Source: Candidatus Sumerlaeota bacterium (GTDB lineage Bacteria > Sumerlaeota > Sumerlaeia > JAFGJS01). Taken from it: a stretch of DNA of 64,000 nt. Made by a program: the position numbers and the translations under genes. The notes beneath the pieces were generated by a model that worked only from the letters and a program-made list of their open reading frames with translations, was not told where the DNA came from and searched no databases. Below, in pieces: positions 12,326 through 48,051 of this stretch. The stretch spans positions 1 to 64,000 of the forward strand of contig JAFGJS010000110.1 of assembly GCA_016928995.1 (NCBI GenBank). The letters run 5' to 3'. The first letter of the stretch is position 1. Each line of letters starts with the position of its first letter.

Positions 12326-13753
<1,428 letters not shown>

Positions 13754-13816
13754 TTTTTTGCTCCATTCTATATATGTTGTTTCTTTCGTTAAATTTCGAA
13801 TGTATGATCTATTTTT

Positions 13817-14518
13817 TTAATTTTTTTGCCCGTAATACGCTCCCGGCCCATGTTTGCGCAGGAAGTGCTTGTCCAGGATGTGGCGCGGAAGCTCCGCTTT
13901 GGGATTCAACTGCCAGGTCATCAGCGCCATGCGCGCGCATTCCTCCAGCACGATTGCATTCTCCAGCGCCTTGGCCGGGGTGGCGCCCCAGGCGAATGGA
14001 GCATGTCCATTCTGCAGCACGGCGGGAACCTGGGCGGGATCGATGCCCAATTCCTCAAAGGCCTCGACAATCGCCACCCCCGTGTTGTGTTCATAGGCCT
14101 CGCGCACTTCGTCCTCGGTCAGGGCGCGGACGCAAGGCACGGTTCCAAAAAAATGATCGGCGTGCGTCGTGCCGAGACACGGCAGCTTCATGCCCGCCTG
14201 ACAGAAGGAGGTGGCGCAGGTGGAATGCGTGTGGACGATGCCATTGGATTCGGGAAATTTTTGCGCAAGGTATAGATGCGTCGGCGTATCGGAGGACGGC
14301 TTGAGCGTTCCTTCGAGGATCTCGCCGCTTGCCAGGCTCAGCACCACGATGTCGTCCGGCGCGAGCTGGTCGTAATCCACGCCGCTCGGTTTGATCGCCA
14401 GCACGCCCGCGTCGCGATCCACGCCGCTGGCGTTGCCCCATGTCAGCGTGACCAGGCCCGCTTTGACGATTTCCTTGTTGACTCGGCAGACTTCTCTTTT
14501 CAGCGCGTCATGCGCCAT
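13817..14518 (-). CDS. araD: L-ribulose-5-phosphate 4-epimerase
   Basis: 233 residues from ATG 14518, chosen because AAGGAG lies eight bases upstream; an in-frame ATG at 14533 overlaps that site. Class II aldolase/epimerase family: TWGNASGVDRDAGVLAIKPS binds phosphate, zinc ligands come from IVHTHSTCATSF (two histidines) and NGHAPFAWG (third), and the C-terminal HGPGAYYGQ carries the catalytic tyrosine, as in AraD. It converts L-ribulose 5-phosphate to D-xylulose 5-phosphate in the cytoplasm, the last arabinose-specific step. It lies 47 bases after the arabinofuranosidase gene. Confidence 0.93.
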   Translation of the reverse strand: MAHDALKREVCRVNKEIVKAGLVTLTWGNASGVDRDAGVLAIKPSGVDYDQLAPDDIVVLSLASGEILEGTLKPSSDTPTHLYLAQKFPESNGIVHTHSTCATSFCQAGMKLPCLGTTHADHFFGTVPCVRALTEDEVREAYEHNTGVAIVEAFEELGIDPAQVPAVLQNGHAPFAWGATPAKALENAIVLEECARMALMTWQLNPKAELPRHILDKHFLRKHGPGAYYGQKN

Positions 14519-14565
14519 GTTACGCTCCTTCATCGATATTATGCGCGGGATCTCCCTGCGCGTGA

Positions 14566-16956: not shown

Positions 16957-17024
16957 TGGCCCGCTCCTCGCAAAAGATATTTTTTACGATGGCCAGTCAA
17001 ATGGCATTTGCGACTCGCCCGCGG

Positions 17025-17051
17025 AGTCCGCGGTCGAAAAACACGCGGACT
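17025..17051 (-). other. Intercistronic hairpin in the arabinose operon
   Basis: AGTCCGCG at 17025-17032 pairs with CGCGGACT at 17044-17051, directly after the kinase coding region; a competing CCGCGGAGTCCGCGG stem lies beside it at 17019-17033. There is no T-run after it on the minus strand, so it looks more like an RNA stabiliser or partial attenuator than a full stop. Confidence 0.4.
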
Positions 17052-17053
17052 GA

Positions 17054-18733
17054 TTATGCGTTACGGGCGGAATCGCGGATTTCCAACAACTCCTTCATGA
17101 CATCATATTGATTGGCGGCGTAATCCTTCGTGCCGAAGAGATCATGCAGCCGTTTATAAAGCTGGTACAGCCGCTCGTAGACCGCGACGTTTTCCGGAAT
17201 CGGTTCGAACCGCTCCGGCAGGGTAGAGGTCATCGCGGCCATGGCGTCCGCATAGTTGTCATAGCCGCCGTTGGCCTTCCCAGCGGCCACAGCTCCGCAG
17301 ATCGCCGAACCCAGCGCGCAGGTCTGCGCGCTGCTGCTGATCTCCATCGGCACATTGGCCACGTCGGCGTAAATCTGCATCACCATTTTGTTCTTCGCGG
17401 AGATTCCGCCGCAGCAGACGATGCGTTCCACCTTGACGCCGTATTCCTCGAAGCGCTCGATGATCGCGCGTGCGCCGTAGGCCGTGGCCTCCACCAGCGC
17501 GCGGAAGATCTCCGCCGGCGTGGTATGCAGCGTCGTGCCCATCAGCAGGCCCGTCAGGCGCTGATCGACCAGGATTGTGCGGTTGCCGTTGTTCCAGTCC
17601 AGCGCCAGCAAGCCGCTTGCGCCCGGTTTCAGGTTTTCCGCTCCGGCGGTCAGCGACGCATGATCCATGTGGTCCGGCTTGATTGAATGCACGTACCAGT
17701 TGAAGATGTCGCCCACGGCCGATTGCCCGGCTTCCAGGCCGTAATGCTCCGGCAGGACGGATTCGGGCACGATGCCGCAGATGCCCGGCACGTCGGGCAG
17801 GTCGCGGTCCATCGGCGCGACGAGAATGTCGCAGGTCGAGGTGCCCATGATTTTCACCAGCGTGCCCGCGCCGATGCCGCAGCCCACGCCGCCCAGGTGC
17901 GCGTCAAAGGCGCCGATGCCGACGGCGATGCCGGCCGGCAGACCCAGGCGTTCCGCCCATTCCGGGCAGAGCTGGCCGGCGGCTTGCGCGATCGACTGGC
18001 AGGATTCCGGCAGCGTTTGGCGGATGCGCGCCAGGCGAGGATCCAGTTTGGACAGAAATTTTTCGTCGGGATATCCGCCCCAGGACGGATTATACATTGC
18101 CTTGTGCCCCGCCGCGCAGACGCCGCGCGGAATGTCCGCCGCGCTCTTCATGCCGCACAGCACGGCCGGCATCCAGTCCGTATGCTCCACGAAGCTGTGA
18201 ATCTTTTCAAACAGATCCGGCGACGTGCGGGCGCAATGCAAAATCTTCGCCCAGAACCATTCCGAGGAGTAGATCCCGCCGCATTTCGCCAGAAACTGCG
18301 GTCGCATTTTCGCCGCGAGTTTTGTGATCTCCGCCGCTTCGGCGTGACTGGTGTGATCCTTCCACAACCAAGCCATCAGCGCCGGCTCGTTTTCATATTC
18401 CGGAAGCAGCGCCAGGGCCTGTCCGGATTCATCCACCGGGATCGGCGTGCTGCCTGTCGTGTCTACGCCAATGCCGATGACTTTGTCCGGCGCGAAGCCG
18501 CTGGTTTTCGCCGCATCGGCCAAGGCGTCCTTCACGGCTTTGGTCATGCCGTCCACGTACTCGCGCGGATGCTGACGCGCCACGTTCGGATCCTTGGCGT
18601 CGATGATCACTCCCGCCTGGCCCATGCGGTAATTATACACGCTTGTGGCGATTTCGTTGCCGTTTGCCGCGTCCACGATCAGCGCGCGCACGGAGTTCGT
18701 TCCAAAATCCAATCCCAAGGCATATGCGCTCAC
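17054..18733 (-). CDS. araB: Ribulokinase (FGGY family)
   Basis: 559 residues from GTG 18733, chosen because AGGAGG stands eight bases upstream; the open frame continues further up without a site. ALGLDFGTNSVRALIVDAAN is the phosphate-1 loop of FGGY kinases. ADIPRGVCAAGHKAMYNPSWG, VGIGAFDAHLGGVGCGI and the C-terminal VCCGGISAKNKMVMQIYADV match ribulokinase AraB and not xylulokinase. It phosphorylates L-ribulose in the cytoplasm using ATP. It follows the permease gene by 43 bases and is followed by the GH51 gene. Confidence 0.93.
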   Translation of the reverse strand: MSAYALGLDFGTNSVRALIVDAANGNEIATSVYNYRMGQAGVIIDAKDPNVARQHPREYVDGMTKAVKDALADAAKTSGFAPDKVIGIGVDTTGSTPIPVDESGQALALLPEYENEPALMAWLWKDHTSHAEAAEITKLAAKMRPQFLAKCGGIYSSEWFWAKILHCARTSPDLFEKIHSFVEHTDWMPAVLCGMKSAADIPRGVCAAGHKAMYNPSWGGYPDEKFLSKLDPRLARIRQTLPESCQSIAQAAGQLCPEWAERLGLPAGIAVGIGAFDAHLGGVGCGIGAGTLVKIMGTSTCDILVAPMDRDLPDVPGICGIVPESVLPEHYGLEAGQSAVGDIFNWYVHSIKPDHMDHASLTAGAENLKPGASGLLALDWNNGNRTILVDQRLTGLLMGTTLHTTPAEIFRALVEATAYGARAIIERFEEYGVKVERIVCCGGISAKNKMVMQIYADVANVPMEISSSAQTCALGSAICGAVAAGKANGGYDNYADAMAAMTSTLPERFEPIPENVAVYERLYQLYKRLHDLFGTKDYAANQYDVMKELLEIRDSARNA

Positions 18734-18776
18734 AACAATACCCTCCTGAATATGATGTAATATGTTATTGTTCCTA

Positions 18777-20000
18777 TTAATTCGCCGCCGCGCCGCTTTC
18801 CCATTCATCCTGCGCCGGCGCCGTAATATACCAAGTCAGCACGCCTAATCCCGCCAATAAGAATCCGCAGAAGAAATACACGGACAATTCCTTCGTGCTG
18901 CGGAACTGGATCGCGTAGAAGATAATCAATCCCAGACCGGCGAGAATCAATATCCAACTGCCCCAGCGCATTCCTTGCCAGAGGGCCAGATTTTTGCTTA
19001 AAGACTTGGCCAACTTCGTTTTTCGCAGCAGCCGGATGAAATCGCCGGATTGCTCGCCCATCACGCCGAGCAGAATCACCGCGCCCATCACCGCGAAGTT
19101 CAGCGAGCTGGGGATGCCAAGCAGGTTGACGAAGTTCTGCAGGATTTGGATCAGCGCCGCGCCGATGATGATGCCGATCACGGAGCCTTCGCCGCCGCGC
19201 AGGCTGCATCCGCCCAGCACCGCCGCGGCGATGCCGTAAAGTTCGTAGAAATTGCCATGCGTCGATGGCGTGACGGAGTTCGTGTAAAAGGCGAATAATA
19301 CCGCCGAAATTCCGGTCAGCACGCCTGCGATGATATAGGTGCTGGCGATCACCAGACGCGTGGAGATGCCGGAGTAACGCGCAGCCTCTTCATTGCGCCC
19401 AACGGCCATCACGTAGCGGCCGTAAACCGAACGGTGCAGCACGATCCACATGATCACGGCGATGATGATCAGCAGGATGAATGAATTGGGGACGCCGGGA
19501 AATACGAGTTTTCCGGATTCGTCCATGACTTCATACAGGCGGCCGCTGGCCAGATGCTTGAGCGTCTCAAAGCCTTCGCAGCTGCCGAAGCCTTTGGTCA
19601 TATTGCCCGCGACATATTGCGCCAATCCGCGATAGAGCAGCAGGCCGCACAGCGTGACAATAAAGGCCTGCATTTTGACCACCGTGACGAGGAAACCGTG
19701 AATCGCGCCCAGCGTCATCGGAAAAAGCACGATCAGAATCGTCGCCACCGGCCACGGAACGTTCCACTCGCGCAGGGCCATGGCCAGCAGCACGCCGGCC
19801 AGCGCGAAGGTGGAGCCGACGGACAGATCGATGCCGCCGGTGATGATGACCAGCCCGACGCCGATACTGAAGATGCCGAACATGCCGACCAGGTTGGCGA
19901 TATTCGAGAGATTGATCCCGGAGATGAATCGCGGATTCATGATCGACACGAGCGTGCATAGCACGACCAATAAAATGAAAATACCAAGTTCCTTCCGCAT
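18777..20000 (-). CDS. Sugar ABC transporter permease
   Basis: 407 residues, RbsC/AraH-type permease: the N-terminal helices, GGIDLSVGSTFALAGVLLAM, GRNEEAARYSGISTRLVIAS (the cytoplasmic EAA-like loop) and GGCSLRGGEGSVIGIIIGAA are diagnostic. The family usually has about 320-340 residues; this one carries an extra C-terminal part with two more hydrophobic segments (WGSWILILAGLGLIIFYAI and VYFFCGFLLAGLGVLTWYI). Start ATG is immediately next to the stop of the ATPase gene (TAAATG). Together with the ATPase and binding protein it should import arabinose or a related pentose. Confidence 0.92.
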   Translation of the reverse strand: MRKELGIFILLVVLCTLVSIMNPRFISGINLSNIANLVGMFGIFSIGVGLVIITGGIDLSVGSTFALAGVLLAMALREWNVPWPVATILIVLFPMTLGAIHGFLVTVVKMQAFIVTLCGLLLYRGLAQYVAGNMTKGFGSCEGFETLKHLASGRLYEVMDESGKLVFPGVPNSFILLIIIAVIMWIVLHRSVYGRYVMAVGRNEEAARYSGISTRLVIASTYIIAGVLTGISAVLFAFYTNSVTPSTHGNFYELYGIAAAVLGGCSLRGGEGSVIGIIIGAALIQILQNFVNLLGIPSSLNFAVMGAVILLGVMGEQSGDFIRLLRKTKLAKSLSKNLALWQGMRWGSWILILAGLGLIIFYAIQFRSTKELSVYFFCGFLLAGLGVLTWYITAPAQDEWESGAAAN

Positions 20001-21605
20001 TTAAGCCGCTTCCCCCTTGTCTTGTTTGAATGGCGGCAGCGCGCCTTCGACCTGATTGCCTACCGCCAGCTGCATGATGTTTTCCTCCGAGCAATGCTCG
20101 CGGGTGAGCACGCCCGTGATGCGGCCCTCGCACATCACGGCGACGCGGTCGCTGACGTGCAGAATTTCTTCCATGTCGCTGCTGATCATGATCACCACGA
20201 CTCCGGCTTTGGCCAGGTCGCGCATGATACGGTAAATCTCCGCCTTCGCGCCCACGTCGATGCCGCGGGTCGGTTCGTCGAAAATAATCACATGAGGTTC
20301 CAGCGAAAGCCATTTGCCCAGCACGACCTTCTGCTGATTTCCGCCGCTGAGGTTCACGACTTCGGTTTCGACGCTGGGCGTTTTGATGTCCAGCGATTCC
20401 CGCTGCTCTTCGGATGTTTTCGTTTCCAGGCGCCGGGAGATCAGGCATCCCATTTTAGCGTAGCGCCCTTGCGCGGGCAGCGGGATATTCTCCCTGATCG
20501 CCATCCGCGTGATCAGGCCGCTGCCGCGCCGGTCCTCCGGCACCAGGTAAATGCCGTGGCGGATCGCGTCGCGCACAGAGCGAATCTTGAGTTGTTCCTC
20601 GCCCATATAGATCTGGGCGGCGGGTTGCCGGTCGATGCCGAAGATCGCTTCCATCACTTCCGACCGTCCGGCGCCCACCAGCCCGGCGAATCCGAAAATT
20701 TCGCCGCGCGAGGCGTCGAACGAAACTTGATACTGTGGATAGGATCGCGACCGGATGCCGCGCACCCGCAGGTGCGCCTGGGTCACTTCGGCGTGCGATT
20801 CCACATAGAAACTTTTAATATCGCGCCCCACCATCATGCGCACCATCGCGTCGTGGCTGATTTCATCTTTTGTCAGTTCGCCCGCGTTTTTGCCGTCGCG
20901 TAAACCAACAACGCGGTCCGCGATGTCGTTCAGCTCCGCGAGACGATGCGAGATATAAATCACGCTGACGCCTTGATGCTTCAGTTCCAGCACGACCTTC
21001 AGCAGCTGCTCGGTCTCATGCAGCGTCAGGCTGGAGGTCGGTTCGTCCATGATGATCAGCCGCGCATCGAGCGAGAGCGCCTTGGCGATCTCCACCATCT
21101 GGCGCTGCGCGATCGGCAGGTCTTTGAGCAAGGTTTTGCTGGAGATATCCAGCCCCAGGCGCTTCAGATAAGGCCGTGTGTTTTCATGGATTCGTTTCCG
21201 GTCAATCAATAGCAATGGGCCGCCACGCCTGGGTTCGCGCCCGAGAAACACATTGCCAGCCACGTCGATGTTGTCGAGCACATTGAGTTCCTGGTGGATA
21301 AACGCGACTCCCAATTTCATCGAAGCTGTCACGTCGGGCACATGAACCACGCGCCCGTCCATCCGGATCTCGCCGCCATCGGGTTGGTAAATTCCTCCCA
21401 GGATGTTCATCAAGGTGGATTTTCCGGCGCCGTTTTCGCCGATCAATCCCAGCACTTCCTGGGCGCCGATGCTAAAATCGACGCGATCCAATGCGATCAC
21501 GCCGGGAAATCGCTTGCAGATGCCTTGCATTTCCAGCAGCGGGGCTGGAGCAGCCCCGCCGCCGGAATTTGTTTCAACTTCATTTCGAACTTGTTGATCC
21601 GACAT
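20001..21605 (-). CDS. Sugar ABC transporter ATPase, tandem domains
   Basis: 534 residues with two ABC modules, as in RbsA/AraG/MglA. Module 1 has Walker A GLIGENGAGKSTLMNIL, a signature-region KDLPIAQRQMVEIAKAL and Walker B LIIMDEPTSSLT. Module 2 has the usual degenerate Walker A (GFAGLVGAGRSEVMEAIFG), the signature LSGGNQQKVVLGKWL and IIFDEPTRGIDVG. It powers pentose import at the inner membrane. The first Met overlaps the stop of the binding-protein gene (TAATG) and its stop touches the permease start, so the three are translationally coupled. Confidence 0.94.
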   Translation of the reverse strand: MSDQQVRNEVETNSGGGAAPAPLLEMQGICKRFPGVIALDRVDFSIGAQEVLGLIGENGAGKSTLMNILGGIYQPDGGEIRMDGRVVHVPDVTASMKLGVAFIHQELNVLDNIDVAGNVFLGREPRRGGPLLLIDRKRIHENTRPYLKRLGLDISSKTLLKDLPIAQRQMVEIAKALSLDARLIIMDEPTSSLTLHETEQLLKVVLELKHQGVSVIYISHRLAELNDIADRVVGLRDGKNAGELTKDEISHDAMVRMMVGRDIKSFYVESHAEVTQAHLRVRGIRSRSYPQYQVSFDASRGEIFGFAGLVGAGRSEVMEAIFGIDRQPAAQIYMGEEQLKIRSVRDAIRHGIYLVPEDRRGSGLITRMAIRENIPLPAQGRYAKMGCLISRRLETKTSEEQRESLDIKTPSVETEVVNLSGGNQQKVVLGKWLSLEPHVIIFDEPTRGIDVGAKAEIYRIMRDLAKAGVVVIMISSDMEEILHVSDRVAVMCEGRITGVLTREHCSEENIMQLAVGNQVEGALPPFKQDKGEAA

Positions 21606-22591
21606 TATTTGCCCAGCATTTCTTTCAGTTGCGCGCTGAATTCCGCGACGTTGTCTTTCATGATGTTTTTCGTGGGGATGATCACGATTTTGCCTTCCGG
21701 AATCGCGTCCGCGTCGCCGCGCAGATGATTCGCCATGCGCGTGATCGCCTGATAGCCGAATTCAAACGGCTGCTGCACCACGGTGCCGTAAATCGTGCCT
21801 TCCTCGACGCCCATCAGCACTTCCTCTTCCTCGTCGAAGCAGACGATCTGGACCTTGCCGGCCAATCCTTTTTCCTTCACGGCGTTGTAAATCGCCGGGC
21901 CGTTGTAACTCCACAGGCCGACCAGGCACGCCAGGTCGTCATATTTCACCAGTGCGTCTTCGACGTTTTTCTTCGCGCGAACCGTGTCTGTGTCGTCCGT
22001 GCGCACGTCGATGATCTCAACGTTCGAGCCTTCGATCGCTTCCTTGATGCCCTGAAAGCGCTCCTTGGCGTTTTGCGCGTCGATCTTGCCTACGAAGACC
22101 ATGATTTTGCCGCCTTCCGGCAGGCACTCTTTGATCAGTTTGCCGGCTTCGCGGCCCGCCGCGACGTTGTCCGTGCCCACGTAGCAGGCGCGGTTGCTTT
22201 TGGGTGCGTCGCTGTCATGGCAGATCAGCAGCGTCTGGCTGGCGATCATGTTCAGCATATCGGTCTGATTTTCCGGATCAATCGGGCTCACCGCGATGCC
22301 GTCGATCCCCATCGCCAACAGGTCGTCGAGATATTGTTTTTGCTGTGTGGCGCTGCCTTCCGACGGAATGCGGAATTCCAGCTTCACGTTTTCCAGTTCG
22401 GCTTCCGCCTTTTCGCAGCCCCGTTGCGCGATCGTCCAGAAGTTCGCCGCGTTGTTTGTCACGAAAGCCAGCGTCAGTTTCTTGGCCGGTTCTTTCGCCG
22501 CTTCTTCCTGCCCCATCGCCTGCCGCCCATTTGAAAACACCATTGCCGCCAGAATGCAAACCATTGTCAGGTGGATCATGCGTTGCTTCAT
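21605..22591 (-). CDS. Periplasmic sugar-binding protein of the ABC importer
   Basis: 328 residues with a signal peptide (MKQRMIHLTMVCILAAMVFS, then NGRQAMGQ) and a type I periplasmic-binding fold: LTLAFVTNNAANFWTIAQRG, GIDGIAVSPIDPENQ, CYVGTDNVAAGREAGKLIKE and GTVVQQPFEFGYQAITRM are RbsB-like. It binds a monosaccharide and delivers it to the permease; arabinose is inferred from the operon. Ends one base into the ATPase gene; starts 29 bases after the epimerase gene. Confidence 0.92.
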   Translation of the reverse strand: MKQRMIHLTMVCILAAMVFSNGRQAMGQEEAAKEPAKKLTLAFVTNNAANFWTIAQRGCEKAEAELENVKLEFRIPSEGSATQQKQYLDDLLAMGIDGIAVSPIDPENQTDMLNMIASQTLLICHDSDAPKSNRACYVGTDNVAAGREAGKLIKECLPEGGKIMVFVGKIDAQNAKERFQGIKEAIEGSNVEIIDVRTDDTDTVRAKKNVEDALVKYDDLACLVGLWSYNGPAIYNAVKEKGLAGKVQIVCFDEEEEVLMGVEEGTIYGTVVQQPFEFGYQAITRMANHLRGDADAIPEGKIVIIPTKNIMKDNVAEFSAQLKEMLGK

Positions 22592-22620
22592 CGTTTCACT
22601 CCTCGCTTTCTCAAGAAAGA

Positions 22621-23766
22621 TTAAAGGGTGGAAAATTTATATACGATCGTGTTGCGATACGTATCGCCAGGATTCAGCACGGTCGAGGGAAACTCCGGCT
22701 TGTTCGGAGAATCGGGATAGTGCTGAGGCTCCAGACAGAACGCCGAGCGGCGCTGATAAACCACTCCGCCTTTGCCGGTGAGCGTGCCGTCCAGGAAATT
22801 CCCGGAGTAGAGCTGCATCCCCGGTTCAGTGGTGTAGACTTCCATCACGCGGCCGGTCTCCGGCTCGGTCACTCTCGCGGCGAAGGATAATTCGCCCGGC
22901 GCGTCTTTCTTGAGCACGAACGTATGGTCGTAGCCCGCGCCGAACTTGAGCTGCTCGTTGTCGGCTTCGATGCGTTCGCCAATGGTGTGGGACGTGGTGA
23001 AATCGAACGGCGTCCCCGCCACAGGCATCAATTCGCCCGTCGGAATCAGCGTTCCATCGACCGGAACGATGTTGTCGCTGTTGATCATGATGGAATGTCC
23101 CAGCATGTCCGTTTTGCCGGCGTCTTTCAGATTGAAGTATGAGTGGTGTGTGAGGTTGCAGATGGTTTTCTGATCGGTGGTGGCGGTGTAGTCGACTTTA
23201 AGGCTGTTGTCATTGGTCAACGTGTAAACCGCGGTCACGCTCAGCGTGCCTGGATAGCCCTCTTCGCCGTCGGGGCTGACGTATTTCAGTTCCAGCGCCG
23301 GGCCTTCCTCGGTTTCCATCGGCTTGGCGTCCCAGACTTTTTTATCAAAGCCTTTGTCGCCGCCGTGCAGATGATTCTCATCGTTGTTTTGCGCCAACGT
23401 ATATTCCTTGCCGTCCAGCGTGAATTTACCCTTGCCGATCCGGTTGCCGAAACGTCCGATCAGGCAGCCGAAATACGGGCTGTGGTTCACGTAATCCTCG
23501 ACGCTTTCGAAGCCCAGCACAACGTCGCCCATTTCGCCGTTCTTATCCGGCACTTTCAATGAGACGACCGTTCCGCCGTAATTCGTGATCCGTGCTTCCG
23601 CGCCTTGCGAGTTCGTCAATGTGTAAATATCCACGTCTTGTTCTCCTACCGTGCCGTATTTTTCGCAACGAATGCTTGATTCCGAATCCTCAGCGGCCCA
23701 TCCCGAAACCGCCAACGTTATTACCGCGTACAAAACCAGCCACATGATAGACCTGATTGGACGCAT
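22621..23766 (-). CDS. galM: Aldose 1-epimerase (mutarotase), exported
   Basis: 381 residues from ATG 23766, which has AAAGGAGG upstream and gives a signal peptide (MRPIRSIMWLVLYAVITLAV, then SGWAAE); the frame runs further up but that part looks non-coding. NYGGTVVSLKVPDKNGEM, FGCLIGRFGNRIGKGKF, NDENHLHGGDKGFDKKVWD and LTHHSYFNLKDAGKTDMLGH are the GalM signatures, with the catalytic His in NLTHHSYFNL and the C-terminal Glu in SAFCLEPQHYPDSPN. It interconverts sugar anomers, here in the periplasm, which would help capture of arabinose released by the GH51 enzyme. First structural gene after the regulator. Confidence 0.93.
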   Translation of the reverse strand: MRPIRSIMWLVLYAVITLAVSGWAAEDSESSIRCEKYGTVGEQDVDIYTLTNSQGAEARITNYGGTVVSLKVPDKNGEMGDVVLGFESVEDYVNHSPYFGCLIGRFGNRIGKGKFTLDGKEYTLAQNNDENHLHGGDKGFDKKVWDAKPMETEEGPALELKYVSPDGEEGYPGTLSVTAVYTLTNDNSLKVDYTATTDQKTICNLTHHSYFNLKDAGKTDMLGHSIMINSDNIVPVDGTLIPTGELMPVAGTPFDFTTSHTIGERIEADNEQLKFGAGYDHTFVLKKDAPGELSFAARVTEPETGRVMEVYTTEPGMQLYSGNFLDGTLTGKGGVVYQRRSAFCLEPQHYPDSPNKPEFPSTVLNPGDTYRNTIVYKFSTL

Positions 23767-23803
23767 ACGACTGCCTCCTTTGTGATGTTTTTGATTCCAG
23801 TTA

Positions 23804-24811
23804 TTATATTTTCTGAACGGAATCGCGTTCAAATAGTCTGGGTTTGATGATTTGGGACCAGCCGCTGGTGCGTCTGCCCGATCCAATCGTTTGCAACATC
23901 TGTTCGCCGACCAGGCGTCCGACGTTGCGGATTCCATAACCGACCGTGGTCAGCGCCGGCCCCAGCACCGACGCCAAATCAATATCGTCGAATCCGACGA
24001 TGCTCACATCCTGCGGGATGTGAAGGCGCAATTGCTGCGCCGCTTTATAAACGCCGATCGCCACCAGGTCGCTGAAACAGAAAATCGCCGTCGGCCGTTT
24101 TTCCTGTCGGCGCAGCACGTCGAATCCGGAATGAAAACCATCCAGCGACGACGATCCGCATTCCACCCTCATCCAATCCTGGCACTGAATGCCGTGTTCG
24201 CTTAACGCCTGCAGAAACCCCGCAAAACGGTCGGCCGAGGCTTTCAGATTAGACGGACCCGCGAAATAACAAATGTCTTGATGCCCCTTTTCAATCAAAT
24301 GCGTAGTCGCAATATAGCCTCCCTGCACATTTTGAAAATCAATGCAATCGAACTGGTGATCCTGAATTCGCTCCACGGTGATCATCGGCCGCTCCATGCG
24401 GCCGAAAATCTCGAGATGGCGCTGATCCGCGGAGCGCGTCAACGAACACAGGATCAAGCCGTCCACACGATACGCCGCCAGCGTCCTGACCGCCTGAATT
24501 TCCCGCTGCAGATCCTCATGTGTGCTGATCGTCAGCAGCGTAAAGCCATCCGGCGCCACGGCGTTCTCGATCCCCTCGACCATATGCGTGAAATACGGAT
24601 TGCCGATGTCGCGCACCACAACCCCGATCAACTTGCTCGGTTTGCCCCGCAGCGAAACGGCAATCTGGTCTTGCACGTAGTGATGCTCCTGGGCGACTTC
24701 CAGGATGCGAGCGCGAGCCTTTTCCGACACTCCAGGTTTGTTGCGCAAGGCCGCCGATACGGTGACGCGGGAGTAGCCGCTCAACCGGGCAATGTCATTC
24801 ATGGTGATCAT
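23804..24811 (-). CDS. LacI family transcriptional regulator
   Basis: 335 residues: helix-turn-helix at about 4-25 (MNDIARLSGYSRVTVSAALR), hinge helix (QIAVSLRGKPSKLIGVVV) and a sugar-binding effector domain (GVVVRDIGNPYFTHMVEGIE, AIFCFSDLVAIGVYKAAQQL, VSIVGFDDIDLASVLGPALT). ATG 24811 has AAGG seven bases upstream; a second ATG at 24802 is possible. It heads the arabinose operon, only 37 bases from galM, and its own promoter overlaps palindromes suited to a LacI-type repressor, so it probably represses the whole operon including itself, released by arabinose or a derivative. Confidence 0.92.
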   Translation of the reverse strand: MITMNDIARLSGYSRVTVSAALRNKPGVSEKARARILEVAQEHHYVQDQIAVSLRGKPSKLIGVVVRDIGNPYFTHMVEGIENAVAPDGFTLLTISTHEDLQREIQAVRTLAAYRVDGLILCSLTRSADQRHLEIFGRMERPMITVERIQDHQFDCIDFQNVQGGYIATTHLIEKGHQDICYFAGPSNLKASADRFAGFLQALSEHGIQCQDWMRVECGSSSLDGFHSGFDVLRRQEKRPTAIFCFSDLVAIGVYKAAQQLRLHIPQDVSIVGFDDIDLASVLGPALTTVGYGIRNVGRLVGEQMLQTIGSGRRTSGWSQIIKPRLFERDSVQKI

Positions 24812-39733: not shown

Positions 39734-42364
39734 ATGGATGGCGTGGAAATCAGCACAGGTTTGCCCGGATTGGATCGGGTGCTGCGAAGGATTCTGGCTG
39801 GCGACAACATCGTATGGCATACGAACAGCATCGAAGATTATAAGTTGTTTGTGCAGCCCTATGCCGATTGGGTGCGGGATCAGGGATCGGAGATTATTTA
39901 TTTCCGTTTCGCCCAGCATGAGCCGCTGCTGGAAGCCGGACCGGGCGTGGAAGTCATTCCGCTCAGTTCGAAGGAAGGTCTGGAGCATTTCCTGATCACC
40001 ATGCACCGGCATATCGAGATGGGCGGACGCGGCGCTTATTACGTGTTCGATTGCCTGACGGACCTGGCCATCGATTGGTACAGCGACACGATGCTCGGTA
40101 ATTTCTTTCAGCTGACGTGTCCGTATCTTTACGACATCGAAGCAGTGGCATATTTTTGCCTGCTGCGCAACCAGCATTCATTCTACGCCACAACTCCGAT
40201 CACCGATACGGCGCAAGTGGTGATCGATGTGCATAATCATCGGGATAAGATCTACATCCATCCGTTGAAAGTGCAACAGCGCCATTCGCCGACGATGTAC
40301 ATGTTGCATGTCTGGGATGGCGATGAGTTCGCGCCGGCCACGGAGAGCGTGATCATCTCCGAAATCATGGCGTCGGTCGGCCGGCCGGAACTGGCTTCGG
40401 CCAGCACGACGCGCGATGTTTGGCAGCGCAGTTTCACGCGGCTGCAACAGCTGTGGGAAGACAAAAAACGCGGCCTGGCAAGCAAAGATGAGATCGAACA
40501 ATGCAAGGAGCGCGTCCTGCGCATGGCCGTTTCGCGCGATGATCGCCTGCTGCAATTAGCGCGGAAATATTTCACGGTGGAAGATCTGCTGGACATCAGC
40601 CATCGCACGATCGGCACCGGCATGCTGGGCGGCAAGGCGGTCGGTATGCTGCTTGCGCGCGCCATTCTGAAAAAGGAGGATCCGCGCTGGCAGGATCTGC
40701 TGGAAGTGCAGGACTCCTTCTACATCGCCTCGGACGTGTTCTACACCTTCCTGGTGCGCAACGGCTGCTGGTGGATCCGTCAGCAGCAATACGATCATGA
40801 AAAATACCTGGAAGGCGCCGAGCGCGGCCGGCATCGCATTCTGCAGGGCGAGTTTCCCGATTACATCGTCCAGCAGTTCTCCGACTTGCTGGATTACTAC
40901 GGCCAGTCGCCGATCATCGTGCGTTCCTCGAGTTTGCTGGAGGACGCCTTCGGCAACGCCTTCGCCGGAAAATACATCAGTGTCTTTTGCCCCAATCAGG
41001 GTTCGCGTAAACAGCGCCTCGACGATTTCATCGCCGCGGTGCGCCAGGTATACGCCAGCACGATGAGCGAGCGCGCGCTGAGCTACCGCGCTCGCCGTAA
41101 TGTGCTGCATCAGGATGAGCAGATGAGCCTGCTGGTCATGCGCGTGTCAGGCGCGCTGTACGGCAATTATTTCTTTCCGCAGATCGCCGGCGTCGGTTTC
41201 TCATTCAATCCGTACGTCTGGCACGAGGACATCGATCCGAATGCCGGGATGTTGCGTCTGGTCTATGGGCTGGGCACTCGCGCTGTTGATCGCACCGATG
41301 ACGATTATACGCGTCTTGTGGCGCTTAATGCGCCAATGCGCAGGCCGGAGAGCAACATCGAGGAAATCACCCAGTTCGCCCAACACAAGGTGGACGTGCT
41401 CGACCTTGAAGTCAATCAGCTGCTTTCGTACCGCTTTGAAAACGTCGCGGCCAAACCGGGATTGAAACCGCCGTTGAGCATCTTCGCCTCCCGCGACGAG
41501 CAACTGCTTCGTGAGAGCCGTGATCGCGGCGGTGAAGTCTTCTCCTGGTTTTTAACGTTCGATAATCTGCTCTCCGAAACGGAATTCGTTCAGGACATGC
41601 GGCAGATGATGCGCTTGTTGCATGACGCCTATGATTATCCCGTGGATGTTGAATTCACGGCTAATTTCCTGGACGAAAAGTCGTATCGGATCAACCTGGT
41701 GCAATGCCGGCCGCTCCAGGTGATCGGCGTCGGCGAAGCGCCGGAAACGCCGGTCAATCTTTCGCGCGAGGAAACGATTCTCGAAGCGCATGGCGCCGTG
41801 ATCGGACATAGCCGGCAAATCCCGATCCATCGTTTCATCTATGTCGTTCCGTCGATCTACAGCCGCATGCCGCAGACCGAGCGATACAGCGTGGCGCGGC
41901 TGATCGGCCGCATCACGCAAGCGCCGCTGGACGACAAAGACGGCAAGATTTTCCTGATCGGTCCCGGACGCTGGGGCACGACGACGCCTTCGCTTGGCGT
42001 CCCAGTTTCCTTCGCGGAGATCAATCGGGTCGCGGTGATTTGCGAGATCGTCGGCATGGACAAAGACATCGTGCCGGACGTGTCGCTGGGCACGCATTTC
42101 TTCAGCGAGCTGGTGGAATTGGATATTTTATACCTGGCGTACTTTCCGCAAAAAGAGCACAACTTTCTCAATGAGCAGTTCTTGCTGGAGACGCCGAACA
42201 AACTGGCGGAACTCCTCCCGGACGTGACGATCAAGATGGAGGATGCCATCCGCGTGATCGACACGGAGGATTTGCCTGGGGGCCGGCCGATCTTTCTCAA
42301 CGCCGCCACGACCGAGCAGAAGGCGGTGTGTTTCGTTGAAACACAGCAGACCGGTTCCGAGTAA
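39734..42364 (+). CDS. Fusion of a KaiC-like domain with a PEP-synthase-like ATP-grasp domain
   Basis: 876 residues, GAAGGA upstream of ATG 39734. The first 240 residues begin STGLPGLDRVLRRILAGDNI, the start of KaiC/RadA ATPases, but the Walker A lysine loop is replaced (VWHTNSIEDYKLFV), so this part probably does not hydrolyse ATP. From about 290 comes a PPDK/PEP-synthase N-terminal domain: GTGMLGGKAVGMLLARAI, SPIIVRSSSLLEDAFGNAFA (ATP-grasp) and VEFTANFL...INLVQCRPLQ. The C-terminal part has LIGPGRWGTTTPSLGVPVSF and PDVSLGTHFFSELVELDILY, a module seen in PPDK-like proteins of Bacteroidetes-type bacteria. No swivelling phosphohistidine or PEP-binding barrel is visible, so it is not a normal PEP synthase. 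A phosphotransfer or nucleotide-sensing role is a guess. Confidence 0.8.
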   Translation: MDGVEISTGLPGLDRVLRRILAGDNIVWHTNSIEDYKLFVQPYADWVRDQGSEIIYFRFAQHEPLLEAGPGVEVIPLSSKEGLEHFLITMHRHIEMGGRGAYYVFDCLTDLAIDWYSDTMLGNFFQLTCPYLYDIEAVAYFCLLRNQHSFYATTPITDTAQVVIDVHNHRDKIYIHPLKVQQRHSPTMYMLHVWDGDEFAPATESVIISEIMASVGRPELASASTTRDVWQRSFTRLQQLWEDKKRGLASKDEIEQCKERVLRMAVSRDDRLLQLARKYFTVEDLLDISHRTIGTGMLGGKAVGMLLARAILKKEDPRWQDLLEVQDSFYIASDVFYTFLVRNGCWWIRQQQYDHEKYLEGAERGRHRILQGEFPDYIVQQFSDLLDYYGQSPIIVRSSSLLEDAFGNAFAGKYISVFCPNQGSRKQRLDDFIAAVRQVYASTMSERALSYRARRNVLHQDEQMSLLVMRVSGALYGNYFFPQIAGVGFSFNPYVWHEDIDPNAGMLRLVYGLGTRAVDRTDDDYTRLVALNAPMRRPESNIEEITQFAQHKVDVLDLEVNQLLSYRFENVAAKPGLKPPLSIFASRDEQLLRESRDRGGEVFSWFLTFDNLLSETEFVQDMRQMMRLLHDAYDYPVDVEFTANFLDEKSYRINLVQCRPLQVIGVGEAPETPVNLSREETILEAHGAVIGHSRQIPIHRFIYVVPSIYSRMPQTERYSVARLIGRITQAPLDDKDGKIFLIGPGRWGTTTPSLGVPVSFAEINRVAVICEIVGMDKDIVPDVSLGTHFFSELVELDILYLAYFPQKEHNFLNEQFLLETPNKLAELLPDVTIKMEDAIRVIDTEDLPGGRPIFLNAATTEQKAVCFVETQQTGSE

Positions 42365-43129: not shown

Positions 43130-44878
43130 TTACAAGTTGCTCATCAGCTGATACAGGTTCTCCCGATCTTGATCAAACCTGGCGAAGGTGAACGCCCTGA
43201 CGATCTGCCCCTGTTTGTTCTGCAGCATCAACGTCGGAACTCGATACACGGTGAATTTATTATTGTCGCAACAATACGACACTCCTTTGCCTGGAGTGAT
43301 CTCCTCGCGATAGCAGACGAAATTTTCCGCAAGCGTCTGGAAGGAAGCGGAAGCGATAATCCCTTCATCCACCTTTTTGCAGATCCCTATGTCATTTTGG
43401 TAGAAATAGAGGATTCGCGGTTTGTTTTGCGCCTGAGCCTTGGTCTGCGCCTCCTTGAAGTCAGGCATCCAGGAGACTAAACTTGGATTTTGCAATTGCG
43501 GTTGCTGCAACCCTATCGGCGTCGCGGATGTATAGGATGGATTCACTTTCCGTCCGGCCAGCATTTCAATCTCCGATTGCGTCAACGCGTAGCTGAAGAT
43601 GTAAAAATCATCGATCCGGCCGTTGAACAGCGGATCATAAGGCCACTGGCTCTTGCCAAGATAGTTCAGATAGGGCTTGATGTCGAAGGGATCCAGCTCG
43701 ATGGAGCCTGTGATCGCGAGGTTTCCATTGGTGTACATTTTGCCGACGTCATCTTTGATCGAAACGGCCACATGGGTCCATTGACCGGCGAGCAGCGGAT
43801 CGGTTTCCAGGATGTTCTCGACATTTCCCTTTCTAATCACGAAACGCAGCGTATCGCCGCCTGAACGCGGCGTCAGGAGGAAGTACGCATCCGTTCCTGC
43901 GCCGAAATCGAAGATGCGCTGCCAGGGTCCGCCGCCATCCCAGTTAACCCACGCGGCGACGGTGATGTCATGCGAATCGATCAATACCGCGGGCAGCATC
44001 ACATAATCATTGGATCCATCTAGAAAGATGGCCTGTCCAGCGTGGCCCATGATAAAGGATATATCGCCGGAGTTGATCCCGTTTTTCGAGTTGATGCTGT
44101 CCAACAGGTTGCCTTCGAAAGCATAGCACGCCACGATGGATTTCAATCCGCCGCTCTGAGACAACGCCGCGACTTCCGATGCCGACAGCGCGTAGTTGTA
44201 TACTCTAAAGTCATCAATGCGGCCATTGAACAGCGGATCGCCCCATTGGCTTTTGCCGATATAATTGTGCACCGGATAAATTGTAGACGGATCCAGCGTG
44301 ATCGGCTTGGAGTCGGCGATGGCGCCATTGACATACAGCGTGCCCGTGTCGCCTTCGAGTGTCACCGCGATATGCGTCCATTCGCCGACGGTCAATTCCG
44401 GCGCTTCGAGCCTTTCCTCTTCTTCATAACTGTCGGATGTAATCGCAAAACGCAGCGTTCGCGAAGCGGAACTCGGCGTGAGAAACAGGTATAGAGTCTT
44501 GTTGTTCCCGAAATCAAAGACACGTTGCCAAGTCCTCTCCCGGCCTTTGCCTCCGTCCCAGTTGATCCATGCCGCGATTGTGATGTCATCCGAATTGGCC
44601 ACACTGGCCGGCAGTTGAATATAATCGTCCAAGCCGTCCAGTTCGATTGACTGTCCGATTCGTCCCACGGCATAAACCGGACTGCCAATCGCATTGCCGT
44701 TGGCCGATCCGGCGGCGTCGAACATGTTTTGATCGAATTGATAATGCACAACCAGCTTCATGCTGTTTGCGCCGCCGCTCATGTTTCCTTCGGCGTGGCT
44801 GGATGGACATGCTCCAACCATGATCACTGACGTCAGCATAATCAGCCATGCCTGACGTTCACGGACGGTGTTCCACAT
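43130..44878 (-). CDS. Secreted protein with two LamG domains and a thioredoxin-like end
   Basis: 582 residues with GAGGA before ATG 44878. A signal peptide (IMLTSVIMVGACPSSHA) is followed by two concanavalin-like LamG domains, about 40-240 and 245-440. Each has the ITIAAWINWDGG / ITVAAWVNWDGG, GEWTHIAVTL / GQWTHVAVSI and NGRIDDFRVYNYALS / NGRIDDFYIFSYALT motifs. The last 130 residues (NKPRILYFYQNDIGICKKVD, YRVPTLMLQNKQGQIVRAFT) resemble a thioredoxin fold, with the cis-proline region VPT but only a single cysteine, IGICKKV, instead of CxxC. Likely periplasmic or surface; function unknown. The LamG domains are close relatives of each other. Confidence 0.82.
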   Translation of the reverse strand: MWNTVRERQAWLIMLTSVIMVGACPSSHAEGNMSGGANSMKLVVHYQFDQNMFDAAGSANGNAIGSPVYAVGRIGQSIELDGLDDYIQLPASVANSDDITIAAWINWDGGKGRERTWQRVFDFGNNKTLYLFLTPSSASRTLRFAITSDSYEEEERLEAPELTVGEWTHIAVTLEGDTGTLYVNGAIADSKPITLDPSTIYPVHNYIGKSQWGDPLFNGRIDDFRVYNYALSASEVAALSQSGGLKSIVACYAFEGNLLDSINSKNGINSGDISFIMGHAGQAIFLDGSNDYVMLPAVLIDSHDITVAAWVNWDGGGPWQRIFDFGAGTDAYFLLTPRSGGDTLRFVIRKGNVENILETDPLLAGQWTHVAVSIKDDVGKMYTNGNLAITGSIELDPFDIKPYLNYLGKSQWPYDPLFNGRIDDFYIFSYALTQSEIEMLAGRKVNPSYTSATPIGLQQPQLQNPSLVSWMPDFKEAQTKAQAQNKPRILYFYQNDIGICKKVDEGIIASASFQTLAENFVCYREEITPGKGVSYCCDNNKFTVYRVPTLMLQNKQGQIVRAFTFARFDQDRENLYQLMSNL

Positions 44879-45140: not shown

Positions 45141-45653
45141 CTAGGAATCCGTCAGGTCCGTTTTGATGGTTTTGACGATTCTGTTCCATTTTCGAGCGTC
45201 GAATCGCAACGCGAGGAACTGGTCGAATAAAGCGAGAAAAACCTGGCTGAAGCGTTCGAATTGATTCAAACGCAGCGAACAGGCTTCTTCGAAAAACATC
45301 GCGCCGGGCACAGGAATCTTGATGCCGCCCAGCGACCATTTGCGCGAATCGAGAGTCAAAGCCCAATCCGCGCCGTCGATTTTCATCAGCAGTTTCACTT
45401 TTTGCGGCGTCTTGTTTTCCTGCAATGCGGTGTGAAATTCGCTCGATTGCGCGGGCATTTCGCCCTTCATCTGCACACGGCTGGCGTTGCCCATTTCGCC
45501 TTCAAGCACCATCTGCTCGCCCAGGCGCACCTCCAGCTCCTCGCAGCCTTCCACGTTGAATTTGCCGTCGTTTTTCAAGCCATGATGCCAGAGCCACATC
45601 AGAAATTCCGGCCCCAAGTGTTCGTATTTTGTAATTGATTCCAGCGTGCCCAT
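45141..45653 (-). CDS. RdgC-like protein, short
   Basis: 170 residues from ATG 45653 (a longer frame to 45719 exists; neither has a strong ribosome site, GGAAAA is closest). YEHLGPEFLMWLWHHG is the segment that in RdgC-type proteins reads LGREFLTWLW, and ALTLDSRKWSLGGIKIP matches the later RdgC-like region; FLALFDQFLALRFDARKW closes it. RdgC binds DNA in E. coli and is about 300 residues, so this is only the C-terminal-like half. The role is unknown. It lies between two secreted-protein genes on the same strand; the 262 bases on its 3' side (44879-45140) hold nothing I can assign. Confidence 0.5.
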   Translation of the reverse strand: MGTLESITKYEHLGPEFLMWLWHHGLKNDGKFNVEGCEELEVRLGEQMVLEGEMGNASRVQMKGEMPAQSSEFHTALQENKTPQKVKLLMKIDGADWALTLDSRKWSLGGIKIPVPGAMFFEEACSLRLNQFERFSQVFLALFDQFLALRFDARKWNRIVKTIKTDLTDS

Positions 45654-45765
45654 GATTTTCGTGTTTTCCAAACTTGGTTGATTCCGGCGAGTGCGTCTCA
45701 TCGCCAGGGCGATCCTCATTCACCATGAACGGGAACGCAACCGGAATCGAAAAAATTTGCGCGTC

Positions 45766-47769
45766 TTATTCCAGAATTTCCCAATGCCTGGCTCGCGACA
45801 ACTCCGCCGGCGCCGGATCTGGCGGATTCGTTTCCGCGCATTCCAGGATTTCCAGTTCCGCCAGGCAGGTGAATGTGTTCTGCGAACCCCATTCCGAGAT
45901 GGCGCGCAGCATGACATACCGCCCCCGCGTGCAGTCGAAATCCACACATTGATAATCCTGTTCCTGCGGGAATTGGCCCGAGGCTACGACCGTGTCCAGA
46001 GTGTCCGGATCGGCGCCAATGTAAAACTCAAAATCCTTAATCATTCCATCCGTTTCGCCGTCGGTGCGCGGCAGATAGACAAAACCGTTGAGTCGACGCT
46101 CCCGTCCCAGGTCGATCACGATTTCATGCGGCAGCGGATCCGGCGACGGACTGGCGCTCGTGCTCCACCACGTCGTTTCATCGCCGTCGAACGCGCTTGT
46201 CGCATCTTCGCCGTCCGTTTTGCTTTCGCTGTCCACGCGCACCAGCGTCCAACCCGACTTTTCCAATGCGCGCGGGCGCCAGGCCTCGTATCCCTCTAAA
46301 TCCGGAAAGGGAAAATCTTCCGAAACTGTCCGGGCCGCTCCAACGATCTGCTTGATCTGCTCGATCACATCGGGTTGTAACAGCGCGACATTGTTTATTT
46401 CCGCAGGATCCGTGCATAAGTCGTAGAGCTCGAATTCCGCCTCTGGATTGTTTAACACATCGGATCGCACAGCCTTCCAGTCGCCCATGCGCACCGCCTG
46501 CAATCCGCCATCGTGGGAATTCAACTCCCAATATAAATATGCATGCTCCGCCTGCGTATCCGCTTCCGTCAGCGCGGGCATGAGGCTGATCCCGTCGCTC
46601 TCTTCCTGCATCACGGCGCCGCAAGCCTCCGCGATGGTCGGCAGCAGATCCCACGCCGCGCAGATATGGCCGCACACTGTTCCTGCTTTCACGCAGCCGG
46701 GCCATTTGACGATCAGCGGCGCGCGGATGCCTCCCTCGTATAGTTCCTGTTTGCCTCCGCGCAAGCCGCCCGAGCTGTCGAAATAGCCGCGATCCACGCC
46801 GCCCTCGTTCGCCGGCCCGTTGTCGCTGGTGAAAATCACGATCGTGTCATCGCTCAAGGCCAAGTCGTCGATCTTCTGCAGGATTTCCCCGATGTCCGAA
46901 TCCAGCCGCGTGATCATCGCCGCATAGGCCGCGCGCGGCTTTGACTGCGGGCTGAAATCGCCGCCGGAGTACACCTGCTCTGGCTCGAACGCCGAACTGA
47001 CGGCGTCAAGCATGTAGTAGTTCAACGAGTCTTGCGGAACTTGCAGCGAAGCATGCGGCGCCGGCGCCGCGTAATAGAGCAACCACGGCTCGCTGGCATG
47101 CGCATCGATGAAATCGATGGCTTGCTGTTTCATCGAATCCGGCGCATAGAGCGCGCCGCCATTGTAAGGATCCGTATTGCCGGTCTGCGCCTCGCGCGCC
47201 ATGTCGCTCCAGAGGTGCGTAGGATAATAAAAACGTCCGACGCGCAGATCCAGATAGCCGTGCCACGCATCCCAGCCCTGGTTGTTCGGCATGGCCTCCG
47301 TATTCACCGCTTGCCCGGCGGCATCATCCCAGCCGCCGCCCAAGCCCCACTTGCCGATCAGGCACGTGGCATAGCCGGCGTCGCTCAGCATGAAGCCCAG
47401 GTTCCACTGGCCGGCCGGAAGCGGGTGCTGTCCAAGGCCGGCCGTTGTCGCGTAATCCATGTCCGCGCGGATGCATGCATGTCCGGTATGCAGTCCTGTC
47501 AGCATCGTGCAACGCGCGGGAGCATCTTCCGCGCTTCCGGAGTAGAACTGGGTGAACCGCATTCCGTCGGCCGCCAGCTGATTCAGAAAAGGAGTGCTGA
47601 TTTTGGGCTGGCCATAGCAGCCGAGATCGCCGATTCCTAAATCATCCGCCTGGATGAGGAGAACATTCGGCTGTGTCGCCGCGTTGCATTGCGAGCCGAA
47701 TTGCAGTGGCAATACGCAGAACACCACGCAGCTGACCAGCGCCAATCTTAAAAATTTTTGACTTTGCAT
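45766..47769 (-). CDS. Sulfatase-fold protein with discoidin domain, catalytic Cys missing
   Basis: 667 residues from ATG 47769 (an upstream TTG at 47772 is less likely). A signal peptide ends near CNAATQPN; the alkaline phosphatase/sulfatase fold follows with metal residues in NVLLIQADDLGIGDLGCYGQ, DDTIVIFTSDNGPANEGG and a GGKQELYEGGIRAPLIVKWP strand. At the place of the C-x-P-S-R signature the sequence is SAEDAPARCTMLTGLHTGH: Asp82 stands where the formylglycine cysteine should be. The C-terminal 140 residues (SAFDGDETTWWSTSASPSPD and following) are an F5/8 type C domain that binds sugars. So it is a relative of secreted arylsulfatases that may not be a sulfatase. Substrate unknown. Confidence 0.9.
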   Translation of the reverse strand: MQSQKFLRLALVSCVVFCVLPLQFGSQCNAATQPNVLLIQADDLGIGDLGCYGQPKISTPFLNQLAADGMRFTQFYSGSAEDAPARCTMLTGLHTGHACIRADMDYATTAGLGQHPLPAGQWNLGFMLSDAGYATCLIGKWGLGGGWDDAAGQAVNTEAMPNNQGWDAWHGYLDLRVGRFYYPTHLWSDMAREAQTGNTDPYNGGALYAPDSMKQQAIDFIDAHASEPWLLYYAAPAPHASLQVPQDSLNYYMLDAVSSAFEPEQVYSGGDFSPQSKPRAAYAAMITRLDSDIGEILQKIDDLALSDDTIVIFTSDNGPANEGGVDRGYFDSSGGLRGGKQELYEGGIRAPLIVKWPGCVKAGTVCGHICAAWDLLPTIAEACGAVMQEESDGISLMPALTEADTQAEHAYLYWELNSHDGGLQAVRMGDWKAVRSDVLNNPEAEFELYDLCTDPAEINNVALLQPDVIEQIKQIVGAARTVSEDFPFPDLEGYEAWRPRALEKSGWTLVRVDSESKTDGEDATSAFDGDETTWWSTSASPSPDPLPHEIVIDLGRERRLNGFVYLPRTDGETDGMIKDFEFYIGADPDTLDTVVASGQFPQEQDYQCVDFDCTRGRYVMLRAISEWGSQNTFTCLAELEILECAETNPPDPAPAELSRARHWEILE

Positions 47770-48051
47770 CAAACAACTCTTTAATTAACACGGCATGGCC
47801 AAACCATCACTGCTTTCAGGTTGATTGACCGGAAAACTCATCGCCGGAACTCAAGACGCAGCTAGAATCGGATGCAACTGGGAGTTTTTTGATCGTGGGA
47901 ATTGCAATCAACGCCACAGAATTTCACCTAACTCAACAAACGCGGCGATTGTTTCATAGCGTCGATTCCAACGCAACTATAATGGCTGTGGAAATTTCTT
48001 TTTTTTTCTTGAAATCGTGGGATGTTTTAAGACAAAGTGATAAGGTCCGGT

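What the first reader, a model, noticed from the sequence alone, without database searches (positions are those of the whole stretch)
47515..47535. Sulfatase-fold protein with Asp in place of the formylglycine cysteine
Seen: the signature region reads EDAPARC, with GAT (47524-47526) where a Cys codon (or Ser) is expected (C-x-P-S/A-R). The metal-binding DD and the rest of the fold are intact, and a discoidin domain follows. Known: type I sulfatases need the Cys or Ser converted to formylglycine. Inference: either an inactive, sugar-binding member or an enzyme of altered chemistry, for example a phosphodiesterase-like or binding role. A Cys (C87) lies five residues later but not at the signature position.
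Basis: partly seen in the sequence, partly recalled or inferred. Interest (0 to 1): 0.6.

Follow-up and report, generated by a model that had tools for sequence, protein, structure and literature searches.

The report
Lone pseudo-sulfatase with aspartate at nucleophile
This exported bacterial protein has the full shape of a sugar-sulfatase but carries an aspartate where every relative examined has the cysteine or serine needed for catalysis, in a genome with no other sulfatase and no recognisable sulfatase-activating enzyme, so it is most likely a retired enzyme kept as a sugar-binding protein.

Summary
The protein at 45766-47772 (- strand; 667 aa from the ATG at 47769) is an S1-type sulfatase fold plus a discoidin (F5/8C) domain. 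GAT at 47524-47526 puts Asp on the formylglycine position. More than 50 relatives have Cys or Ser there, including a same-class protein with the same two domains (L007, 42% identical, SPVCAPSRC). The Cys five residues later is an ordinary family residue. Metal and sulfate-cage residues (D43, D44, R87, K141, H240, D317, N318, K341) are kept. A strict D-x-P-x-R motif search of about 1,166 genomes found no second case. It is the only PF00884 protein in its 92%-complete genome, which has no anSME and only FGE-like proteins lacking the catalytic Cys pair. It also lost near-invariant residues (N104D, A179G, H180R), and its catalytic domain evolves faster than the Cys sister's. Best reading: a secreted pseudo-sulfatase that lost formylglycine chemistry together with the maturation system; its discoidin domain points to glycan binding. 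Loss of formylglycine catalysis follows from sequence; the binding role is inferred. An Asp-dependent hydrolase is not excluded but unsupported. A new variant of a known kind, of modest interest.

The parts
45766..47769 (-). Pseudo-sulfatase gene, 667 aa from ATG (668 aa if TTG at 47772 is used)
   Evidence: open frame without stops, coding-like GC by codon position
47680..47769 (-). N-terminal hydrophobic export signal (residues about 2-31)
   Evidence: read directly from sequence; cleavage site not predicted with a dedicated tool
46618..47670 (-). Sulfatase (PF00884) domain, residues 35-385
   Evidence: AlphaFold model with catalytic core mostly pLDDT above 90; best PDB match 7ANB, TM 0.88 by target
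47509..47529 (-). Signature EDAPARC, counterpart of VCAPSRC in relatives
47524..47526 (-). GAT, Asp83 (Asp82 from ATG) on the formylglycine position
47641..47646 (-). Metal ligands D43, D44 (kept)
   Evidence: alignments; family ligands Asp13/Asp14 of AtsA listed in PMC6388578
47512..47514 (-). R87, conserved Arg of the signature (kept)
   Evidence: invariant column; Arg55 of AtsA
47461..47463 (-). D104 in place of near-invariant Asn
47350..47352 (-). K141 of the GKW motif (kept)
   Evidence: invariant column
47233..47238 (-). G179-R180 in place of near-invariant Ala-His; the His is probably the one that reads galactose O4 in BT1636
   Evidence: equivalence to the BT1636 His is inferred from alignment and the review PMC10154612
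47053..47055 (-). H240 (kept)
   Evidence: invariant column
46819..46824 (-). D317, N318 metal ligands (kept)
46750..46752 (-). K341 (kept)
   Evidence: invariant column
45856..46227 (-). Discoidin / F5-8 type C domain, residues 516-639, related to galactose-binding NedA-like domains
   Evidence: shared with L007 and with another exported-looking protein in the genome, L002

Best explanation
An exported pseudo-sulfatase. It descends from a Cys-type carbohydrate sulfatase fused to a discoidin domain (S1_4/S1_20 neighbourhood). The lineage has no recognisable formylglycine-maturation enzyme and no other sulfatase, and the nucleophile is now Asp. Because formylglycine cannot be made from Asp, the known S1 mechanism (gem-diol attack on sulfur, then elimination) is impossible. 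The fold, the Ca2+ ligands and the anion-cage residues are kept; the Asp carboxylate probably sits in or next to the cage (inferred). The protein most likely persists as a secreted glycan-binding protein that works through the discoidin domain and possibly the old sugar cleft. Shown: the substitution, kept metal/cage residues, other changed near-invariant residues, absence of maturases and of other sulfatases in this assembly, faster evolution of the catalytic domain. Inferred: absence of all catalysis and the binding role.
For: Asp at the FGly position while 50+ relatives have C/S. L007, same class and same full-length architecture, has Cys. Only one PF00884 protein in the genome. No anSME over cut-off, although in this phylum anSME accompanies the C-type motif (9 of 12 genomes with the motif against 4 of 27 without, Fisher p=0.0005). 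The four PF03781 proteins lack the FGE Cys pair. 9 of 74 near-invariant positions departed, including C83D, N104D, A179G, H180R; most relatives depart at 0-7, and only two of the more divergent ones reach 8 and 10. Long end branch, 1.55 against median 0.68. Relative-rate excess in the catalytic domain against all seven reference rows used (67-96 private changes against 29-56 in L007), with no clear excess in the discoidin domain (17 against 10). No other D-type in about 1,166 genomes by strict motif. Intact long ORF and confident sulfatase fold.
Against: Eight catalytic-site residues other than the nucleophile are kept, more than a decayed site needs, which could mean retained or altered catalysis. 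The genome is about 92% complete, so a maturase or another sulfatase could be missing. Some genomes of the phylum have C-type motifs without detected anSME (G028, G035, G038), so absence of a known maturase is not conclusive. No close relative carrying Asp is known, so purifying selection on the Asp form cannot be measured. Binding is not demonstrated, and no polysaccharide-utilisation genes lie next to it.
Confidence: 0.57

Rival explanations
1. A functionless relic: the sulfatase became useless when the maturation enzyme was lost, the nucleophile drifted to Asp, and the gene is on its way out without a current role.
For: Single copy, no maturase found, accelerated catalytic domain, other near-invariant residues lost, no family of Asp-type relatives.
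Against: No stop or frameshift in 668 codons, most invariant residues kept (65 of 74), export signal and discoidin domain intact, coding-like codon composition.
Confidence: 0.26
2. An active hydrolase with changed chemistry: Asp83 acts as the nucleophile (acyl-enzyme) or as a base that activates water beside the metal, giving a phosphodiesterase-, phosphatase- or sulfatase-like activity without formylglycine.
For: All metal ligands and the Arg/Lys/His cage are kept; the alkaline phosphatase superfamily is catalytically promiscuous (title and abstract of PMC12421950).
Against: Asp is longer and already charged and would repel an anionic sulfate or phosphate (chemical reasoning); the near-invariant His and Asn are lost; no second case in about 1,166 genomes; I know of no Asp nucleophile in this superfamily (own knowledge).
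Confidence: 0.11
3. Sequencing or assembly error; the true codon is Cys or Ser.
For: Single fragmented assembly (161 contigs), no reads available.
Against: At least two substitutions needed in the codon; the neighbouring residue and other near-invariant residues are changed too; no maturase found in the same genome.
Confidence: 0.03
4. An active sulfatase that uses the nearby C88 as relocated formylglycine.
For: C88 lies five residues after the Asp.
Against: Cys at that position is common in relatives that also carry the catalytic Cys (PSRC/PARC); no C-x-P-x-R context around it; no maturase found.
Confidence: 0.01

Closest known systems
BT4683 (S1_4, 3S-Gal endo-sulfatase; PDB 7ANA/7ANB)
   Same: Best sequence (8.8e-95) and fold match (TM 0.88 by target, 37% identity); shares metal ligands, signature frame xAPARC, GKWGLG and HEGGIR/YEGGIR motifs.
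   Different: Has Ser (SPVSAPARC), the residue that becomes formylglycine in such enzymes; keeps the pocket His; no discoidin domain in the solved chain.
BT1636 (S1_20, 3S-Gal sulfatase; PDB 7AN1/7OQD)
   Same: Second best match (2.8e-87; TM 0.84).
   Different: Active formylglycine enzyme with the Gal-O4-reading His (PMC10154612); the window has Arg at the probable equivalent.
L007, discoidin-fused Cys-type sulfatase of the same class (genome G005)
   Same: 42% identity over 626 residues including the discoidin domain.
   Different: SPVCAPSRC nucleophile and VHAHNHYP pocket motif intact; its genome carries an anSME fragment at a contig edge.
S1 members of Lentisphaerae/Planctomycetes with the signature Arg replaced by Ile/Leu (SulfAtlas paper)
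   Same: Precedent for putatively inactive S1 homologues in sulfatase-rich bacteria (PMC5066984).
   Different: There the Arg, not the nucleophile, is changed; that alignment reported only Cys or Ser at the nucleophile.
YejM/PbgA/LapC periplasmic domain
   Same: Alkaline-phosphatase-superfamily fold reported as a pseudo-hydrolase that works by binding (PMC13125744).
   Different: Not closely related by sequence; membrane-anchored LPS sensor, reported there without a metal site, whereas the window protein keeps its metal ligands. A separate paper (PMC7576196, title only read) calls YejM a metalloenzyme.

Membership tests
S1 (FGly) sulfatase, as a fold/sequence family | PF00884 domain and S1 sulfatase fold | tested here: met
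   PF00884 1.1e-43 over cut-off; TM 0.88 to 7ANB
S1 (FGly) sulfatase, as an active enzyme | Cys or Ser in C/S-x-P/A-x-R that becomes formylglycine | tested here: not met
   D-A-P-A-R at the aligned position
S1 (FGly) sulfatase, as an active enzyme | Ca2+ ligands (Asp13, Asp14, Asp317, Asn318 in AtsA) | tested here: met
   D43, D44, D317, N318 present in the alignment; metal content itself not testable
S1 (FGly) sulfatase, as an active enzyme | Arg55, His211, Lys375 (AtsA) and the GKW Lys | tested here: met
   R87, H240, K341, K141 in invariant columns; AtsA list from PMC6388578 and PMC5066984
S1 (FGly) sulfatase, as an active enzyme | A maturation enzyme (FGE with Cys pair, or anSME) in the genome | tested here: not met
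   No anSME over cut-off; four FGE-like proteins lack the Cys pair; assembly 92% complete, and unknown maturases cannot be ruled out
S1_4 / S1_20 subfamilies | Subfamily assignment by SulfAtlas | not testable with these tools
   SulfAtlas profiles not on hand; nearest characterised members are S1_4 and S1_20
S1_20 | His that reads the axial O4 of galactose | tested here: inconclusive
   R180 stands at the near-invariant A-H position, but equivalence of that His to the BT1636 residue is inferred, as the primary paper is not held
Discoidin / F5-8 type C carbohydrate-binding domain | PF00754 over cut-off | tested here: met
   59 bits against cut-off 28.2; also PF22633 NedA-like 33.2 against 27.8
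AP-superfamily pseudo-hydrolase used for binding (YejM-like in mode) | Demonstrated ligand binding without catalysis | not testable with these tools
   needs purified protein

The most novel reading that the evidence does not exclude
A formylglycine-independent hydrolase in which Asp83, beside the retained metal site and Arg/Lys/His cage, serves as nucleophile or general base, allowing an S1-fold enzyme to work in a cell without sulfatase-maturation machinery.
Probability: 0.09. Interest if true: 0.75.

Novelty: new variant of a known kind. Interest (0 to 1): 0.33.

Why it matters
It is a clean natural case of an S1 sulfatase losing its unique catalytic residue in a genome where the whole formylglycine system appears to be gone, while the fold, metal ligands and an appended sugar-binding domain are kept. 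It warns that PF00884 annotation alone overstates sulfatase capacity, and gives a simple test of whether the formylglycine pocket can be reused for binding or for other chemistry.

Tried and rejected
Search for a moved nucleophile: C88 is a normal family Cys. Search for a family of D-type sulfatases by the strict DNA motif F-x9-D-x-P-[SA]-R-x4-T-G in the window's phylum (40 genomes), a planctomycete-centred phylum set (392), an Opitutales-centred phylum set (388) and a domain-wide sample (386, of which 346 new): besides the window itself only non-sulfatase chance matches, at about the rate of the reversed control. The same motif with Cys gave 91 hits in 12 of 40 genomes and no reversed-control hit, so the motif works but is strict: it samples only a fraction of all sulfatases and cannot prove absence. 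Search for FGE in the genome: four PF03781 proteins found, the one searched against the PDB nearest to PvdO, none with the Cys pair. Literature search for an Asp-type S1 sulfatase found none; the library misses most subscription papers. The tree does not place the window protein with support. The primary paper on BT1636/BT4683 is not held.

Full report
Observation. The minus-strand ORF 45766-47772 encodes 668 residues from TTG or 667 from the better-placed ATG at 47769. Pfam finds Sulfatase (PF00884, 1.1e-43), SGSH_C and a discoidin domain (F5_F8_type_C, 7e-16). The signature region reads FTQFYSGSAEDAPARCTMLTG; the GAT at 47524-47526 is the Asp.

Is it really the formylglycine position? Yes. 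Against PDB 7ANA/7ANB (BT4683, a 3S-Gal sulfatase, E 8.8e-95) and 7AN1 (BT1636, 2.8e-87) the alignment is ungapped here, and the Asp pairs with the Ser of SPVSAPARC. Among all pairwise-aligned homologous ORFs spanning the site in the fetched loci (more than 50), every clear sulfatase has Cys or Ser; the one weak match without them (L035) is a remote superfamily member. The Cys five residues downstream occurs in many relatives that also have the catalytic Cys, so it is not a moved nucleophile. GAT is two or three substitutions from any Cys or Ser codon.

What is kept. The residues listed for AtsA in the literature (Asp13, Asp14, Asp317, Asn318, Arg55, His211, Lys375; PMC6388578; PMC5066984) correspond to D43, D44, D317, N318, R87, H240 and K341, all present, as is the GKW lysine K141. 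An AlphaFold model built on an alignment of 20 sequences gives a catalytic domain largely above pLDDT 90; its best PDB match is 7ANB with TM 0.88 by target length and 37% identity. The discoidin domain was modelled poorly.

What is lost besides the nucleophile. In an alignment of 30 family members the window protein departs from 9 of 74 near-invariant columns: D64N, C83D, N104D, F167W, A179G, H180R, F230W, F231L, F373A. Most other members depart at 0 to 7; only two more divergent ones reach 8 and 10. The A-H motif at 179-180 (HAHxYYP in the family) probably contains the His that reads galactose O4 in S1_20 enzymes (review PMC10154612); that identity is inferred because the primary paper is not held.

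Evolution. L007, from another family of the same class, has the same architecture over its full length, with 42% identity, Cys at the nucleophile and the pocket His intact, so the Asp form is probably derived from a Cys-type discoidin-fused sulfatase. The window branch is long (1.55 against a median of 0.68) and its place in the tree is unresolved. In three-way comparisons the window catalytic domain has 67-96 private changes against 29-56 in L007, depending on the reference row (p from below 0.0001 to 0.10; not all reference rows are assured outgroups), whereas the discoidin domain has 17 against 10. Window and L007 are more alike in the discoidin domain (48%) than in the catalytic domain (42%), the reverse of L007 against L053 (37% and 48%). 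This fits relaxed but not absent constraint on the catalytic part.

Genome context. The window's genome (4.55 Mb, 92.5% complete) contains exactly one detected PF00884 protein, this one. No anSME reaches the TIGR03942 cut-off. In the other 39 genomes of the phylum held, anSME is found in 9 of 12 genomes with the C-type signature motif and in 4 of 27 without (Fisher p = 0.0005), so anSME is the usual companion here. Four PF03781 proteins exist, but none has the two active-site cysteines of FGE (alignment to human FGE); the one searched against the PDB is nearest to PvdO. The genome therefore appears unable to make formylglycine by either known route, with the caveats of completeness and unknown maturases. 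Neighbouring genes are housekeeping upstream (CarD, RsfS, HD) and, downstream, an unknown 192-aa ORF and a LamG-LamG-thioredoxin protein; no polysaccharide-utilisation cluster adjoins it.

Singleton status. The strict DNA motif for F-x9-D-x-P-[SA]-R-x4-T-G, searched in about 1,166 distinct genomes, returned only the window as a sulfatase (candidates checked with a family HMM). The Cys version of the motif gave 91 hits in the 40 genomes of the phylum. The motif is strict, so rarer D-type members elsewhere remain possible.

Mechanism. Formylglycine cannot be made from Asp, so the standard mechanism is excluded by sequence. Asp reaches one carbon further than formylglycine and carries a negative charge, so it would compete with a substrate sulfate for the Arg/Lys/His cage (inference). 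With other near-invariant residues changed as well, loss of sulfatase function is the simplest reading. The kept export signal, fold and discoidin domain suggest retention as a secreted glycan-binding protein; the same discoidin type is attached to another exported-looking protein in this genome (L002), consistent with a general carbohydrate-binding module (inference). A relic without function is the main rival; an Asp-dependent hydrolase is the novel but unsupported one.

Known or new. S1 homologues thought inactive are on record (nine with the signature Arg lost, PMC5066984), and pseudo-hydrolases of the wider superfamily that work by binding are known (YejM, PMC13125744). A native Asp at the formylglycine position was not found in the papers searched, but the literature library is partial. 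I rate it a new variant of a known kind with modest interest.

Noticed in passing
window 43130-44878 (-): A fusion of two LamG (concanavalin-like) domains with a C-terminal thioredoxin-like domain, just downstream of the pseudo-sulfatase.
   Followed up: no
L002 / G000:C26:591-1073: A 400-aa exported-looking protein with an unrelated N-terminal part carries the same W-x-LVRVDSES discoidin domain (43% identity), suggesting the module is shuffled among exported proteins.
   Followed up: partly
L061-L064 (G000 contigs C70, C33, C69): Four FGE-domain proteins without the FGE Cys pair; two adjacent ones on C69 share a long C-terminal extension.
   Followed up: partly
window 12326-23937 (-): Likely arabinose-utilisation cluster: fucose/arabinose isomerase-like protein, alpha-L-arabinofuranosidase, FGGY kinase, ABC ATPase, aldose epimerase.
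   Followed up: no
window 39734-42364 (+): An 876-aa protein whose central part matches the PPDK ATP-binding domain, in an otherwise unassigned frame.
   Followed up: no
window 45141-45719 (-): A 192-aa ORF 46 bases downstream of the pseudo-sulfatase with no Pfam match; possibly in the same transcript.
   Followed up: no
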